A stretch of DNA of 42,759 nucleotides from a virus. Positions within the stretch are counted from its first letter, which is position 1. Every line of letters starts with the position of its first letter. Position numbers and translations under genes: made by a program. This document shows positions 35,610-42,759 of the stretch, in pieces. The stretch spans positions 1-42,759 of the IMG/VR virus record IMGVR_UViG_3300037189_030188. The stretch is one strand, 5' to 3'. The notes under the pieces are model-generated. The model was given only the letters and a program-made list of their open reading frames with translations, was not told where the DNA came from and made no database searches.

Positions 35610-35870
35610 ATGAGCCTTCCTTTTTCAGAAAAGAAAGAAAAAAACTATTCTATTAGAAAATTCTCGGAAAACGTAGATTCCCATGAATTAAAGTGGCATA
35701 AAGACAAAGAAGATAGAATTGTAATTCCACTACAAGAAACAAATTGGCTTTTTCAAAGAGAAAATCAACTACCAGAACCTATAAATAAAGAAATCAAAAT
35801 TAAAGCCAATGAATGGCACAGAGTAATAAAAGGCACGGGCGATTTAGTTATCAAAGTTTTTAAATTATGA
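35610..35870 (+). CDS. Small beta-rich protein, 86 aa, unknown
   Basis: ATG 35610 is chosen because CGGAG precedes it at 6-7 bases. Contains SHELKWHKDKEDRIVIPLQETNWLFQRENQLPEPI and IKANEWHRVIKGTGDLVIKVFKL. The spacing of H, W and E residues and the ending WHRVIKGTGDLVIKV are reminiscent of a small cupin-like barrel, but this is weak. Its stop overlaps the start of the caspase-like gene (ATGA), so the two are coupled. Confidence 0.5.
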   Translation: MSLPFSEKKEKNYSIRKFSENVDSHELKWHKDKEDRIVIPLQETNWLFQRENQLPEPINKEIKIKANEWHRVIKGTGDLVIKVFKL

Positions 35871-36769
35871 GAAAATATGTTTTTATTTGTTTGTTGAACT
35901 TTTTGTATTTAGGATTTTTATTTTATCCATATGAACATTATGGTGTAGAAACTGCTCTTCCATATGACATTGAAAATAACAATGTATCTTTATTGTTTAC
36001 TTTAACAAATGAAGGAGGAAGAATAGAAAATTTAAATTATATGAAAAGCATATTTGAAGATAAATCTTTAGGATTTGTTTATGAATCATTTCATAATAAG
36101 TCTGCTAACTTTATTTATGACAAAATAACCGAAACCTGTAAAGATTTAGATGAAGAAGCGACTTTACTTTTATATTTAAATGGTCATGGAGGGGGTTACA
36201 ATAAAAACTTTGCCATGGATGCTAGCGATCAAAAATTAAAGTTTAGTAAAATATTAAATTCTATAATTAAAGTAAAGCCTATAAAAAGATTAGTAGTCTT
36301 TGTGGATACTTGCCATGCTGAAGGTGCGATCAACGAAGGATTTCAAGGAGGCGGAAGAATACTAAAAAGCAAACCCAAGTTGGCAGAGCTAACAGACAAA
36401 ATAAACTTTCCCGCTATGTTTAAAGAAAATGAAAAAATATATTTTGGCGAAGACACTAAGGCCTATGAAGAATTATTGATAATCGTATCATCTAGTGCGG
36501 ACAAATTAACTACTAGAGGAATTTTTGCTAGGAACATGAAAAAGACTTTTGAAAACATCAAAAAAGACAAAAATGCCTCAGTGTACGATTTTTTAAATTT
36601 ATTTGCACAATTGGATATCCAGTCTGGTCAACAGCCTTATTACAAGATAATTCCAGAAAGCATATTGAACGAACCTTTGTTTAAAAATACACTTGCTCGT
36701 AGCATTCCCATCAAAGACAAAGAAAAATTCAAAAAGAGTTATATTCTATTACCGGAGTTTAAAAATTGA
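35867..36769 (+). CDS. Caspase-like cysteine peptidase (clan CD) with N-terminal membrane/signal segment, 300 aa
   Basis: Clan CD motifs are present: catalytic His107 in LLLYLNGHGGGYN and Cys149 in RLVVFVDTCHAEGAI, each after a hydrophobic strand, then a typical LIIVSSSADKLTTRGIFARNM block near residues 200-225. The N-terminus (KYVFICLLNFLYLGFLFYPY) is a signal or membrane anchor, so the catalytic part may act outside the cytoplasm or at the membrane. Bacterial caspase-like proteases often cut after Arg or Lys and are linked to programmed death and defence. Its stop overlaps the TTG start of the DDAH-like gene, implying a paired function. Confidence 0.8.
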   Translation: MRKYVFICLLNFLYLGFLFYPYEHYGVETALPYDIENNNVSLLFTLTNEGGRIENLNYMKSIFEDKSLGFVYESFHNKSANFIYDKITETCKDLDEEATLLLYLNGHGGGYNKNFAMDASDQKLKFSKILNSIIKVKPIKRLVVFVDTCHAEGAINEGFQGGGRILKSKPKLAELTDKINFPAMFKENEKIYFGEDTKAYEELLIIVSSSADKLTTRGIFARNMKKTFENIKKDKNASVYDFLNLFAQLDIQSGQQPYYKIIPESILNEPLFKNTLARSIPIKDKEKFKKSYILLPEFKN

Positions 36770-37554
36770 AAAGAATTCTTGTTTGTGATCCATCTTTTTA
36801 TCAAATCAATTATGAAATAAATCCTTGGATGAACGTTAAAAAGAAGGCAAATGAAAGTTTAGCATTAAATCAATGGAATAATTTAACTTTAGTCATTCAA
36901 AGTTTGGGCGTTAAACTTTTAAAAATGCCCCCAGTTCAAAAACTTCCCGATATTGTTTTTACAGCTAATGCTGGATTTAGTTTCAAAGAAAAAGTAGTAT
37001 TGTCTAATTTTAAATATGATCAAAGAAGACCAGAAAAAGAATATTATGAAAACTATTTAAATAAAAATAATATTACAACAATTTCTTTGCCAAACAACAT
37101 ACTCTTTGAAGGGGCAGGAGATTGTCTTTTTAATGAAAACTATATTTTCATGGGCTACGGTTTTAGAAGTGAAATTAGTGCTTACAAAGAAAAAATTTGG
37201 GATGAATTTAATCTCGAAAGAATATTCTTAAAACTTATTGATCCTTATTTTTATCATTTAGATACTTGCTTTTGTCCTCTTCAACAAAATCAGATATTAA
37301 TTAACGCAAAAGCTTTTGAAGAAAAAACTATTCAACTATTAAAAGAAAAATTTGAACTAATAGATGTGCCAGAACAAGATGCTAAACAATTTGCCTGCAA
37401 TGCTGTAGTGATAGATAAAAATGTTATCATCCCTTCTGGATGTTTTGAAACTAAAAATAAACTGGAAAGTAAAGGATATAGAGTTTTTGATGTTGATATG
37501 AGTGAATTTATAAAAGCAGGTGGGGCGTGTAAGTGCCTTACTCTTTTGGTATAG
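36766..37554 (+). CDS. DDAH/amidinotransferase-family enzyme (guanidine-modifying), 262 aa
   Basis: Starts with TTG (GGAG 8 bases upstream) in a TTGA overlap with the caspase-like gene. Family motifs: DIVFTANAG (62-70), FEGAGDCLF (114-122; E115, D119), HLDTCFCPL (H164) and the end AGGACKCLTLLV with the nucleophile most likely C257. These match dimethylarginine dimethylaminohydrolases and related arginine dihydrolases of the pentein fold, which act on the guanidine group of arginine or methylarginine. All main active-site residues appear intact. Substrate unknown. Coupling to a caspase-like peptidase is unusual. Confidence 0.8.
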   Translation: MKRILVCDPSFYQINYEINPWMNVKKKANESLALNQWNNLTLVIQSLGVKLLKMPPVQKLPDIVFTANAGFSFKEKVVLSNFKYDQRRPEKEYYENYLNKNNITTISLPNNILFEGAGDCLFNENYIFMGYGFRSEISAYKEKIWDEFNLERIFLKLIDPYFYHLDTCFCPLQQNQILINAKAFEEKTIQLLKEKFELIDVPEQDAKQFACNAVVIDKNVIIPSGCFETKNKLESKGYRVFDVDMSEFIKAGGACKCLTLLV

Positions 37555-38166: not shown

Positions 38167-38516
38167 GATGGTTTTTAAAAATTTTAGATATATATCTCTG
38201 ATGGAAAATTTTTGTTTCAAAAAATATCTAGAAAATGATTATCAAATGAGTCACCGACCTCCAGAAAGTGATTTTGGAGCTCCTTTGCACGACTTAACAA
38301 AAATTTACCCAAAAGATGTTTACGAAAGTCCACACTATTATGCTGGAGATGATTTTGAACGAGAATCAGCCTATTTGGCTTTAAGATATAAAGACAAGCC
38401 GACCAGATTGGTTTGGATCTTTAGAGCAGTTCCTAAGGGAGTAAAAATTATAAATCCTGGGGATTGGGTAACAATTAATAGGAAATACGCTATTCAACAC
38501 AGCAAACATCCTTTTG

Positions 38517-38660
38517 GTGAATGCGCCCACCCCCTAAAGGGAGTGGGCTTCTAAGACATTATTGTCTAAAGAGTTCATTCCAACTCTTAATATGTTTTTT
38601 GCAGCATTAAGGTCACGGCTTAACTGTAATCCACAAGCAAAACAGTCGTGATTTCGCTCG
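38517..38660 (-). ncRNA. Predicted omega (guide) RNA region of the TnpB element
   Basis: Known TnpB systems make an RNA from the tnpB 3' end through the right end, with the guide taken from the adjacent DNA. By position this RNA would run on the minus strand, end its scaffold at 38517 and carry as guide the flank from 38516 downward (CAAAAGGATGTTTGCT...), which is part of the split gene. The 5' limit given is approximate. Inference from family knowledge; no transcript data. Confidence 0.45.
38525..38548. repeat. Right-end hairpin of the TnpB element
   Basis: GCCCAC...GTGGGC with a CCCCTAAAGGG core, an imperfect palindrome that closely resembles the left-end hairpin (39866-39887). The tnpB stop codon lies within it. 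Confidence 0.8.
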
Positions 38661-39661
38661 CCTAGTTCTTTCTTTACCTTAATTCCACAACCGCTGCATA
38701 TTTGACTTGTATATTCTGGCTTTACTTCCGCTACCACACAACCAGCCTCTTCCGCTTTGTAATGTAGCATATTACGAAAATTAGTCCAGCCACTATCAAG
38801 TATGCTTTTATTTAATCGTCGCCAGTTATCCTTGAGCATGTTTTTTACACTCAACTTCTCAACGCAGATAACCGAATATTTGTTTACTAGACTTCTGCTT
38901 GTCTTGTGCAAGAAGTCTTTTCTTTGATTCTTTACCTTGAGGTGAAGGTTCACAAGTTGCTTTTTTGCTTTGATCTTCTTCTTGTCTTCTCTGGGAAGAT
39001 TCTTTAATTTGCTGTATTTTGATTGAAACTGTTTAAGTTTGTCTTCACATTGTCTTAAGTAGTGAGGATTCTTTATTGTTGAACCATCACTCATGGTGGC
39101 AAAATCTATACAACCTACATCAATGCCGACAGCCTTTGTTTCAATTCTTTCTTGAGGATCTATCTCGCTATCACAAGAGAAAACTACATACCAATCGTTC
39201 GCTTCTCGTTTGATGGTACAAGTCTTTACTTTGCCAATTAGTTCTCTGTGTTTGATTACCTTTACCTCACCAATCTTTGAAAGGTAAAGTTTGTTGCCAT
39301 TGAGTTTAAACCCAGACTGCGGAAAGCAGAAAGAATCGTACCTGTCGTAACTTTTAAATCTTGGATACCCCGCTTTATCCTTGCTTTCTTTTAATCTTCG
39401 GAAGAACCCTTGGAATGCAAGGTCAACCCTAGCGGACACATTCTGGAGGACTTGTGAATGGACGCCCTCTATCTTCCAAGTCTTGATTAGATTGTGGCAG
39501 TCGTAAACACCAAGGCTTTTCTTTTCTTTTTCCCAACTGTTTTTTCTTGTCTCAAGAACCTTGTTATAGGTATGACGGCAAACATCAAGGGTTTGTTGCA
39601 ACCTTTTTAACTTGCCATTTTTGGCATATATCCTATACTTGATGTTGCGGGTGGCCTTCAT
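38534..39661 (-). CDS. tnpB: TnpB RNA-guided nuclease, 375 aa
   Basis: ATG 39661 gives a typical TnpB start (MKATRNIKYRIY); the upstream in-frame extension translates the element's left end and flank and is not part of the gene. RuvC residues are complete: D181 in VGIDVG, E268 in ICVEKLSV and D350 in SRDLNAAKN, with the Cys4 zinc ribbon C322/C325/C340/C343. The nuclease should therefore be active. TnpB is guided by an omega RNA from the element's right end and cuts DNA next to a TAM. The stop codon lies inside the right-end hairpin, so the gene and the RNA region overlap, as in known elements. Confidence 0.93.
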   Translation of the reverse strand: MKATRNIKYRIYAKNGKLKRLQQTLDVCRHTYNKVLETRKNSWEKEKKSLGVYDCHNLIKTWKIEGVHSQVLQNVSARVDLAFQGFFRRLKESKDKAGYPRFKSYDRYDSFCFPQSGFKLNGNKLYLSKIGEVKVIKHRELIGKVKTCTIKREANDWYVVFSCDSEIDPQERIETKAVGIDVGCIDFATMSDGSTIKNPHYLRQCEDKLKQFQSKYSKLKNLPREDKKKIKAKKQLVNLHLKVKNQRKDFLHKTSRSLVNKYSVICVEKLSVKNMLKDNWRRLNKSILDSGWTNFRNMLHYKAEEAGCVVAEVKPEYTSQICSGCGIKVKKELGERNHDCFACGLQLSRDLNAAKNILRVGMNSLDNNVLEAHSL

Positions 39662-39719
39662 ACCCTTTATATAGTAAGATTTATGTAAAATTCTCAAAAA
39701 ATTTTTACTACATAAATAT

Positions 39720-39833
39720 ATGGTTGAATACCACTCAAAAAATCGGCACAAGTTCCTTATCAAATTGCACATCATATTTGTGGTGAAGTACAGAAAAAGA
39801 CTGCTTGTGAACGATTTAGGCGACGACATCAAA
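39720..39833 (+). pseudogene. tnpA: tnpA remnant (IS200-type transposase, N-terminal 38 codons)
   Basis: ATG 39720 begins MVEYHSKNRHKFLIKLHIIF, then VVKYRKRLL, matching the first helix and strand of Y1 IS200/IS605 transposases (H-[IV]-[IVF]-[FW]-x-x-KYR). It then stops matching at about residue 38 and runs into the left-end hairpin. The HUH motif and catalytic Tyr are gone. It diverges from tnpB with 58 bases between start codons, the IS605 arrangement, so an internal deletion removed most of tnpA. Confidence 0.75.
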
Positions 39834-39865
39834 TATAGTGTGTGTGTAATTTTACCGCCATTCAT

Positions 39866-39887
39866 CCCAGCCCCTAAAGGGACTGGG
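39866..39887. repeat. Left-end hairpin of the TnpB element
   Basis: CCCAGCCCC-TAAA-GGGACTGGG imperfect palindrome, like the right-end one. These end hairpins are recognised by TnpA in IS200/IS605 elements. Confidence 0.8.
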
Positions 39888-40051
39888 TTTTCTGGCGGGA
39901 GGAGTATAAAAAACAAGACATGATTGTAATTGCTGCAAAAGTTCCAGCTAGTAGCATACATACAGATGGAAATAGTTTTGCAGAATGGGGCTATAATGGC
40001 TTGGCTCCTCTTAAGGCAACAATTAGTTATAGACCAAAATGAGAGGTAAAA

Positions 40052-40851: not shown

Positions 40852-41595
40852 CTATTCTTTGAGATATTTAATCAAATTCTCACAATTCAATAATCCTTTG
40901 TATTTTCTTTGCTCTTCCGTCATGTTTTCTATAGCTTTTGCTAAAAGTTCTTTATCTATTTCATTTTCTTGAATTAAGTATTGTCGCAATATAAACAAAC
41001 AAAAATGATTCTCGGGAAATCCCACAGTTACTTGTCTTTCCACTTTGACTAAAACTATTGGGTTATTAATGTCGAATTTTTTATCTTCAAATCTTGGGTG
41101 AAAATTGTATTTGTTCTCATAAATAACGCTCCAAACAAATCTTTCAAATATCCCCCCATAAACAGCAGCATGAATTAACTTTTTACTATTTTTAAGATTC
41201 ATTGGAACGGGCTTATGAATATCCTCAAAGCTTAAGCCTATCTTTTCTTCTGGCAACCAATGACTAGCAAAGCAAACGTGAGCACTGCAAAGATAATCTT
41301 TATCGCCATCTATTCTGTGAATTAAAAAATCCTCATTAGTTTCTTTTACTATGTCTAAGTAATTTTTGCTTTTTAAAGATGAAGGATAATTTTCTAAAAT
41401 AAAATTAGCAGATATATCATAAAATAATGGATTTATATTGTATTCAAAAAAGTATCTTTGATTCTTTAGAGCATCAAACTTTTCAGTTTGAATGAGTTCC
41501 GAATCAAAATTATTTTTTTCAAAAACTTCTTCTTTTTGAATTTTTCTTAAGTTGGGTAAAGTGCTATACCCATTTTTGTAGGCATGATAGTTCAT
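40852..41595 (-). CDS. DUF3445 / heme-dependent oxidative N-demethylase-like protein, 247 aa
   Basis: The core matches this family: AHVCFASHWLPEEKIGLSFEDIHKPVP (about residues 105-131), FERFVWSVIYENKYNFHPRF near residue 150 and VKVERQVTVGFPENHFCLFILRQYLI near 183-208 (the E-R-Q and hydrophobic-strand ending). Family members bind heme and oxidatively demethylate methylamines. The start codon is the last base triplet before the second TnpB element, which replaced whatever lay upstream, and no good ribosome-binding site is visible now. Expression may be lost or altered. Such a gene in a phage is unusual. Confidence 0.72.
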   Translation of the reverse strand: MNYHAYKNGYSTLPNLRKIQKEEVFEKNNFDSELIQTEKFDALKNQRYFFEYNINPLFYDISANFILENYPSSLKSKNYLDIVKETNEDFLIHRIDGDKDYLCSAHVCFASHWLPEEKIGLSFEDIHKPVPMNLKNSKKLIHAAVYGGIFERFVWSVIYENKYNFHPRFEDKKFDINNPIVLVKVERQVTVGFPENHFCLFILRQYLIQENEIDKELLAKAIENMTEEQRKYKGLLNCENLIKYLKE

Positions 41596-41613
41596 ATGTC
41601 ACCGGCAAGGAAA

Positions 41614-41635
41614 CCCACTTGCTTTAGCGGGTGGG
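41614..41635. repeat. Left-end hairpin of the second TnpB element
   Basis: CCCAC...GTGGG imperfect palindrome with a GCTTTAGC core; position relative to the target motif (18 bases inside) is similar to that of the first element's left end. Confidence 0.7.
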
Positions 41636-41727
41636 AGGAATTGCCATTTAGTATAAGAAAATTTCCCAAAAAGTCAAGAAAAATTTTAAAGGAGGTGCAT
41701 ACATACTTATTGAAGGTATATGAAAAA

Positions 41728-42759
41728 ATGAAACTTGCGACAAAAGTTAAACTAGTGGTGAACCAAAAGGAAAAAGAGCGATTGACTCAAACGATGATTG
41801 CCTTTAACCGTGCCGCCAACTATGTCTCAAAAGTAGCATTTGAAAACAAAACCTTCGGTCAAGTTAATCTACACAAACTTGTATACTACGAAATCAAGCA
41901 AAAGTACAACCTCTCAAGCCAGTTGGCAATAAGGGTCATCGGCAAAGTGGTTGATGTTTACAAAAACAAGAAACAAAGATCTGGTATTGTTAGTTTCAAG
42001 GAAATGGGAAGCATTGATTACGACACAAGAAACCTTTCAATCAAAAAAGACAATGTGATATCCTTGGCAACACTCGGCAAAAGAATAAGCATCAAATACA
42101 AATACCACAAGCCACTCAAGGACTACGATCTTTGCACTCAAAGCGAGTTGAACTTTGATAAACCAACAAACAGGTTCTATGTAAGTTTCTTCTACGACAA
42201 GAATGAACTTGCTCCATACGACACAAATAAGTTTCTTGGTGTTGATTTGGGTGTGGTTAATTTGGCAACGACAAGCGATGGCGAAGTTTTTAGTGGAGAG
42301 CAAGTTGAAAACTACAGAAAGAAAATAACCAAACTCAAAGCAGTACTTCAAAGCAAAAAATCAGTTTCAGCAAAGTACAAACTCAAAAAAATAAGCAAAA
42401 GGGAGGCAAACTACAAAAAAGATGTCAATCACTGTATAAGCAAAAAGTTGGTACAAAAAGCAAATGCACTTAAAGTTGGAATCAAGTTAGAAGATTTAAA
42501 CTTTAAGAAAAAGGTTAAGAGCAAAGGTTACACCAAAAAATGGAAAGACAATAACGCAAAACTAGGCAAGTGGGCTTTCTTTCAATTAAGACAATACATT
42601 GACTATAAAGCCAAGTTGCTTGGCGTTCCTGTTGTTTACATTAATCCCGCTTATACAAGTCAAACATGTAGCAAATGCGGTCATTATCACGAAGACAATC
42701 GTTTGAATCAAAGTGAATTCAAGTGCTTGGTTTGCAACTATGAAAACAACGCTGATCTA
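41728..42759 (+). CDS. tnpB: TnpB RNA-guided nuclease (partial, 344 residues visible)
   Basis: Open to the window end. RuvC residues visible: D173 in FLGVDLGVVNLA, E255 in IKLEDLNF and D343 in the last codons (NNADL). Zinc ribbon C314/C317/C333/C336 is present. Only the last RuvC helix and C-terminus are missing, so this too looks active. Start ATG 41728; a TTG at 41710 is nearer to the strong AAAGGAGG at 41688-41695 and may be the true start. Clearly different from the first TnpB (different N-terminus and spacing), so of separate origin. Confidence 0.9.
   Translation, partial: MKLATKVKLVVNQKEKERLTQTMIAFNRAANYVSKVAFENKTFGQVNLHKLVYYEIKQKYNLSSQLAIRVIGKVVDVYKNKKQRSGIVSFKEMGSIDYDTRNLSIKKDNVISLATLGKRISIKYKYHKPLKDYDLCTQSELNFDKPTNRFYVSFFYDKNELAPYDTNKFLGVDLGVVNLATTSDGEVFSGEQVENYRKKITKLKAVLQSKKSVSAKYKLKKISKREANYKKDVNHCISKKLVQKANALKVGIKLEDLNFKKKVKSKGYTKKWKDNNAKLGKWAFFQLRQYIDYKAKLLGVPVVYINPAYTSQTCSKCGHYHEDNRLNQSEFKCLVCNYENNADL

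What the first reader, a model, noticed from the sequence alone, without database searches (positions are those of the whole stretch)
38201..40042. TnpB element inserted cleanly in a phage ADP-ribosyltransferase-like gene; empty site can be rebuilt
Removing 38517-39905 joins the two gene parts in frame (HPF-D-KKQDM) to give a complete 150-residue protein. The target motif is TTTAT and the element ends in TTCAC. The predicted guide matches the DNA next to the insertion, so the nuclease should cut element-free copies of this very gene at TTTAT followed by CAAAAGGATGTTTGCT. That would favour spread of the element among co-infecting phages, like homing. The host gene is a possible host-modifying toxin, now inactive unless excision restores it.
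Basis: partly seen in the sequence, partly recalled or inferred. Interest (0 to 1): 0.85.

Follow-up and report, generated by a model that had tools for sequence, protein, structure and literature searches.

The report
RNA-guided transposon interrupting a phage gene
A small "jumping gene" carrying an RNA-guided DNA cutter (TnpB) but no working transposase of its own sits cleanly inside a conserved gene of a huge bacterial virus, and near-copies of it have spread through other such viruses; this is a good, well-preserved example of a known kind of element, and its proposed homing is a published model, not a new mechanism.

Summary
An IS200/IS605-type element (38517-39905, 1389 bp) is inserted without loss or duplication in a phage gene. 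Both gene pieces match one conserved phage domain (PHROG 2579) at adjacent profile positions, and an intact relative (L011) has the same length across the junction. Sister copies confirm the ends: TTTAT precedes the left end in all four copies whose left end is visible, and all six right ends finish in GCATTCAC before unrelated flanks. TnpB keeps its three catalytic residues and is under strong purifying selection (dN/dS 0.04-0.05). Suppressed synonymous change in the last 25 codons and covarying stems support the omega-RNA. tnpA is also broken or absent in the close copies L002-L004. Close copies turned up only in phage contigs, including a diverged huge phage. A second, unrelated TnpB element lies 1.7 kb away. 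Homing into element-free copies is plausible and already proposed for TnpB (Karvelis 2021), but no allele with TAM and guide match was found; the best relative lacks the TAM and has 8 of 16 guide mismatches. The ADP-ribosyltransferase/toxin label is not supported by the tests run.

The parts
38517..39905 (-). IS200/IS605-type element with tnpB (left end at 39905, right end at 38517)
   Evidence: Borders shared with sister copies L003, L004, L005 (left end) and L002, L003, L004, L005, L010 (right end); about 89% nt identity over 1.2-1.3 kb to L002-L004
39906..39910 (-). Target motif / TAM TTTAT directly outside the left end
   Evidence: Read directly; TTTAT also precedes the left ends in L003, L004 and L005
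39855..39905 (-). Left-end subterminal hairpin (CCCAGTCCC-TTTA-GGGGCTGGG inside an outer stem)
   Evidence: Fold z-score -5.1 for 39850-39910; conserved in L003, L004, L005
39720..39833 (+). tnpA remnant, 38 codons, N-terminus of a Y1 (HUH) transposase; catalytic HUH motif and tyrosine deleted
   Evidence: Pfam Y1_Tnp positions 3-28 of 121; 88% identical to the tnpA N-termini of L002 and L003
38534..39661 (-). tnpB, 375 aa, RNA-guided endonuclease with RuvC D-E-D residues and zinc finger
   Evidence: Pfam OrfB_IS605 and Cas12f1-like_TNB, NCBIfam guided_TnpB 1.8e-86, aligned to ISDra2 TnpB 8h1j, dN/dS 0.04-0.05 against L002-L004
38517..38636 (-). Inferred omega-RNA scaffold: 3' end of tnpB plus right end, three stem-loops
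   Evidence: z-score -4.2; synonymous differences 0.04 in the last 25 codons against 0.15-0.40 elsewhere; five pairs with two-sided changes, all from L005. No Rfam family matches
38525..38548 (-). Right-end subterminal hairpin (GCCCACTCCC-TTTA-GGGGGTGGGC)
   Evidence: Fold -21.3 kcal/mol, z-score -4.3
38501..38516 (-). Predicted 16-nt guide, CAAAAGGATGTTTGCT, taken from host-gene DNA
   Evidence: Directly outside the right end; guide length by analogy with ISDra2 (PMC8612924)
38201..38516 (+). 5' piece of the interrupted phage gene (PHROG 2579 domain)
   Evidence: PHROG 2579 positions 338-429; 73% identical to intact L011
39906..40042 (+). 3' piece of the interrupted phage gene, with the conserved DGNS..EWGY end
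   Evidence: PHROG 2579 positions 434-462; 68% identical to intact L011

Best explanation
This is a tnpA-defective IS200/IS605 (IS605-like) element in a huge-phage genome, inserted seamlessly 3' of a TTTAT target site inside a conserved phage gene, which it disrupts. Its intact TnpB, loaded with an omega-RNA from the 3' end of tnpB and the right end, takes its guide from the flanking gene. TnpB is expected to cut any copy of that site lacking the element, so repair from an element-bearing copy restores it: maintenance, or homing between co-infecting near-identical phages. New sites can only be reached with a Y1 transposase supplied in trans. Shown: insertion, borders, target motif, tnpA loss, intact TnpB catalytic residues, purifying selection, RNA-level constraint, presence of close copies in other phages including a diverged huge phage. 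Inferred: omega-RNA expression, cleavage, homing, trans mobilisation. The confidence given is for the identity and architecture of the element; for homing between phages actually occurring I would say about 0.5.
For: Insertion and borders. TnpB D-E-D residues aligned with those of ISDra2 TnpB. Selection on tnpB (dN about 0.03, dS 0.6-0.75). Synonymous suppression at the 3' end. Covariation. tnpA cut to 38 codons here, absent in L004, stopped by a TGA in L003, broken in L002, intact only in the 74%-identical L005. Horizontal spread: TnpB 94% identical in G003 while the phages' baseplate wedge proteins are 55% identical. No close copy among bacterial/archaeal genomes, plasmids or isolate phages (best 42-45%). 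The homing model is stated for ISDra2 in PMC8612924 and tested as a plasmid gene drive in PMC11870625.
Against: No element-free allele with TTTAT and a guide match was found for this site or, by exact joined patterns, for two sister intergenic sites. The closest intact allele would not be a target, so homing here could work only within near-identical phages. No expression or cleavage data. All two-sided covariation comes from one sequence. The collection scans use exact 8-residue patterns, so some relatives may be missed.
Confidence: 0.85

Rival explanations
1. Dead passenger: the element hopped in once with help from another transposase and is now an inert relic, with no active nuclease and no homing.
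For: tnpA is mostly deleted; the host gene is broken; no element-free alleles were found to act as targets.
Against: tnpB is open with all catalytic residues, dN/dS is about 0.04-0.05 over dS of 0.6-0.75, and the omega-RNA region shows extra constraint. The constraint describes the lineage, so this single copy could still be recently dead.
Confidence: 0.1
2. TnpB has been taken over by the phage for another job (for example cutting rival phages or host DNA, or TldR-like regulation), with transposition no longer relevant.
For: tnpA decay with tnpB conservation; huge phages often carry several TnpBs (up to 15 in one record).
Against: Terminal hairpins, target motif and right end are intact, and sister copies lie at different sites with different guides, so guides follow insertion sites and not a fixed target. 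The nuclease triad is intact, unlike nuclease-dead TldR-type proteins.
Confidence: 0.07
3. The two gene pieces are separate genes and the element lies between them.
For: The 3' piece has an internal ATG at 39920.
Against: Both pieces hit adjacent parts of one profile, and intact homologues are continuous.
Confidence: 0.02

Closest known systems
ISDra2 (Deinococcus radiodurans) and its TnpB (PDB 8h1j, 8bf8, 8exa)
   Same: TnpB aligned over residues 9-364 with all RuvC residues; omega-RNA from the right end; TAM equal to the insertion motif; homing into transposon-less alleles proposed (PMC8612924)
   Different: TAM TTTAT instead of TTGAT; tnpA deleted; carried by a phage; nuclease activity not tested
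IS605-type divergent tnpA/tnpB elements
   Same: tnpA and tnpB on opposite strands, subterminal hairpins, pentanucleotide target, no target duplication
   Different: Only 38 codons of tnpA remain
TnpB gene drive of IS elements in plasmids (PMC11870625)
   Same: Element-bearing replicon expected to gain by cutting element-free copies
   Different: Shown for plasmids; here phages, and only inferred
Group I intron and free-standing homing endonucleases of phages
   Same: Cut the empty site, copied in by repair (general knowledge; analogy also drawn in PMC8612924)
   Different: Cutting is RNA-guided, there is no splicing, and the insertion disrupts the gene

Membership tests
IS200/IS605 family | Y1 HUH transposase (TnpA) | tested here: not met
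   Only positions 3-28 of 121 of Y1_Tnp remain; met in the relative L005. This copy is filed as a defective derivative of the family, not as a complete member
IS200/IS605 family | Subterminal hairpins at both ends | tested here: met
IS200/IS605 family | Insertion 3' of a fixed short target, no target duplication, no loss | tested here: met
   TTTAT in 4 of 4 left ends; pieces adjacent in profile and equal in length to the intact homologue
TnpB RNA-guided endonucleases | RuvC D-E-D residues and zinc finger | tested here: met
   Alignment to 8h1j; NCBIfam guided_TnpB over cut-off
TnpB RNA-guided endonucleases | Structured omega-RNA at the tnpB 3' end / right end | tested here: met
   (computed; expression not tested)
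TnpB RNA-guided endonucleases | Guided, TAM-dependent DNA cleavage | not testable with these tools
   Needs a cleavage assay
Homing element | Element-free alleles carrying the target exist and are converted | tested here: inconclusive
   No allele with TAM and guide match found; best relative mismatched
ADP-ribosyltransferase (host gene) | ART fold with R-S/T-E triad | tested here: inconclusive
   R71, T87 and E128 of L011 are invariant in the alignment, but no family match, low-confidence model and no significant PDB match

The most novel reading that the evidence does not exclude
Transposase-less TnpB elements circulate mainly or only among huge phages, spreading by RNA-guided homing during co-infection (plus trans mobilisation), so that TnpB alone is what selection preserves and huge phages act as TnpB reservoirs.
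Probability: 0.25. Interest if true: 0.65.

Novelty: new member of a known kind. Interest (0 to 1): 0.4.

Why it matters
It gives a clean natural test case for TnpB homing in phages: exact ends, a predicted TAM (TTTAT), a predicted guide, and sister copies at other sites. The pattern that tnpA decays while tnpB stays under purifying selection, in elements moving between diverged huge phages, fits the view that the nuclease drives persistence and spread. It does not add a new mechanism.

Tried and rejected
Exact 26-base left flank in IMG/VR: no match. Joined-flank patterns for two sister intergenic sites (L003, L004): no match, so no empty site could be shown directly. Flanks of L004 and L005 in isolate phages: one weak partial hit and none. 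Caspase-like neighbour gene as a probe for close phage relatives: none. Rfam on the region: none. AlphaFold model of the intact L011 homologue and PDB fold search: poor model, no significant match; profile search of PDB sequences: only chance-level hits. Two early searches failed on a wrong frame, two on a limit of loci per call, one on a search term. Sites elsewhere in the window resembling TAM plus guide: best has 6 of 16 mismatches, so no second target.

Full report
Observation. The window is a 42.8-kb virus record. Its baseplate wedge protein has relatives of 85-87% identity in short contigs and of 47-70% in records of 340 kb (L031), 511 kb (L101) and 595 kb (LR756511), so it is most likely a fragment of a huge phage. 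At 38201 an ATG opens a gene whose frame continues to 38516, is interrupted by 1389 bp, and resumes at 39906 to a stop at 40042. The 5' piece matches PHROG 2579 at profile positions 338-429 and the 3' piece at 434-462. The best intact relative, L011 (73%), has the same number of residues across the junction, and L011 also carries a homologue of the neighbouring 37541-37777 gene 1.4 kb away. The insertion is therefore clean, with no duplication and no loss.

The element. The minus strand carries tnpB (38534-39661, 375 aa). It matches OrfB_IS605 and Cas12f1-like_TNB and NCBIfam guided_TnpB, and aligns with ISDra2 TnpB over residues 9-364, including the three RuvC residues (GIDVG, VEKL, SRDLNAA) and the zinc finger. 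The opposite strand has only the first 38 codons of a Y1 transposase. Alignment with sister copies shows that the rest of tnpA was lost in a deletion reaching close to the left end.

Sister copies. A scan of 2.9 million viral contigs found tnpB at 94-95% identity in L002, L003 and L004, a 3' remnant in L010 (92%) and a 74% relative in L005. The left ends of the window, L003, L004 and L005 copies are each preceded by TTTAT; all six right ends finish GCATTCAC and then diverge. TTTAT occurs at about 0.46% of positions per strand, so agreement of three further copies by chance is about 1e-7. Sites differ: L003 lies between two genes just after a terminator-like hairpin, L004 just upstream of a start codon, L005 and L010 inside genes (my reading of the open frames). 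The tnpA gene is deleted here, absent in L004, carries an in-frame TGA in L003, and is broken in L002, whose left end was not found; it is intact only in L005. In contrast tnpB has dN about 0.03 and dS 0.6-0.75, a ratio of 0.04-0.05. Synonymous differences fall to 0.04 in the last 25 codons, against 0.15-0.40 elsewhere, as expected if that stretch is also the omega-RNA. The 3' 140 bases fold into stem-loops with five pairs changed on both sides (all five from L005, so one lineage), and both ends form strong hairpins.

Distribution. Close copies appear only in viral contigs. The single bacterial/archaeal genome scan gave at best 42-44%, isolate phages at best 44%, and plasmids at best 45%. The scan patterns are exact 8-residue words, so absence is not proof. 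G003, a 459-kb phage carrying a 94% TnpB, has a baseplate wedge protein only 55% identical to the window's, so the element moved between diverged phages.

Homing. That the guide matches the flank is inherent to TnpB elements. The missing evidence is an element-free allele bearing TTTAT and the guide match. None was found; L011 has TGGGT at the TAM position and 8 of 16 mismatches. Homing, if it occurs, is thus limited to near-identical phages. With tnpA gone, precise excision and movement to new sites would need a transposase in trans.

Host gene. The family is conserved in mycobacteriophages, Vibrio phages and Rhodococcus phage E3, named 'ParB C-terminal domain' or hypothetical. Conserved R, T and E residues would fit an ART, but no family search, PDB sequence search or fold search (low-confidence model) supports it. 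The toxin idea is unproven.

Verdict. Real, cleanly resolved, a new member of a known kind (a tnpA-defective derivative). Added here beyond the finding: loss of tnpA, sister copies with shared borders, selection on tnpB and its RNA, and a second TnpB element (TAM TTCAT) near the window's end.

Noticed in passing
window 41591-42759 (+): A second, unrelated TnpB element (about 30% identical to the first), cut by the contig end. Left end at 41596 preceded by TTCAT; three contigs (L127-L129) carry it at 93-94% aa with the same border and no tnpA between the left end and tnpB. It abuts the start of a haem-dependent N-demethylase-like gene (40852-41595), which it may truncate.
   Followed up: partly
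L006 record (G050, 368758 bases): One huge-phage record holds 15 TnpB-type genes (15 matches over the PF07282 cut-off), apparently mostly diverged from each other.
   Followed up: partly
L010:3899-4449: Remnant of the same element fused in frame into what reads like a nucleotidyltransferase (RmlA-like) gene, with the right end intact: a decayed insertion that lost most of tnpB and apparently part of the gene.
   Followed up: no
L003:3641-3985 (-): tnpA of this copy is stopped by a TGA where relatives have Trp; whether this phage recodes TGA was not tested.
   Followed up: no
window 35867-36769 (+): Caspase-like peptidase (Peptidase_C14, E 8.9e-6) in a phage, next to a dimethylarginine dimethylaminohydrolase-like gene (36766-37554). 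No relative of the peptidase was found in IMG/VR.
   Followed up: no
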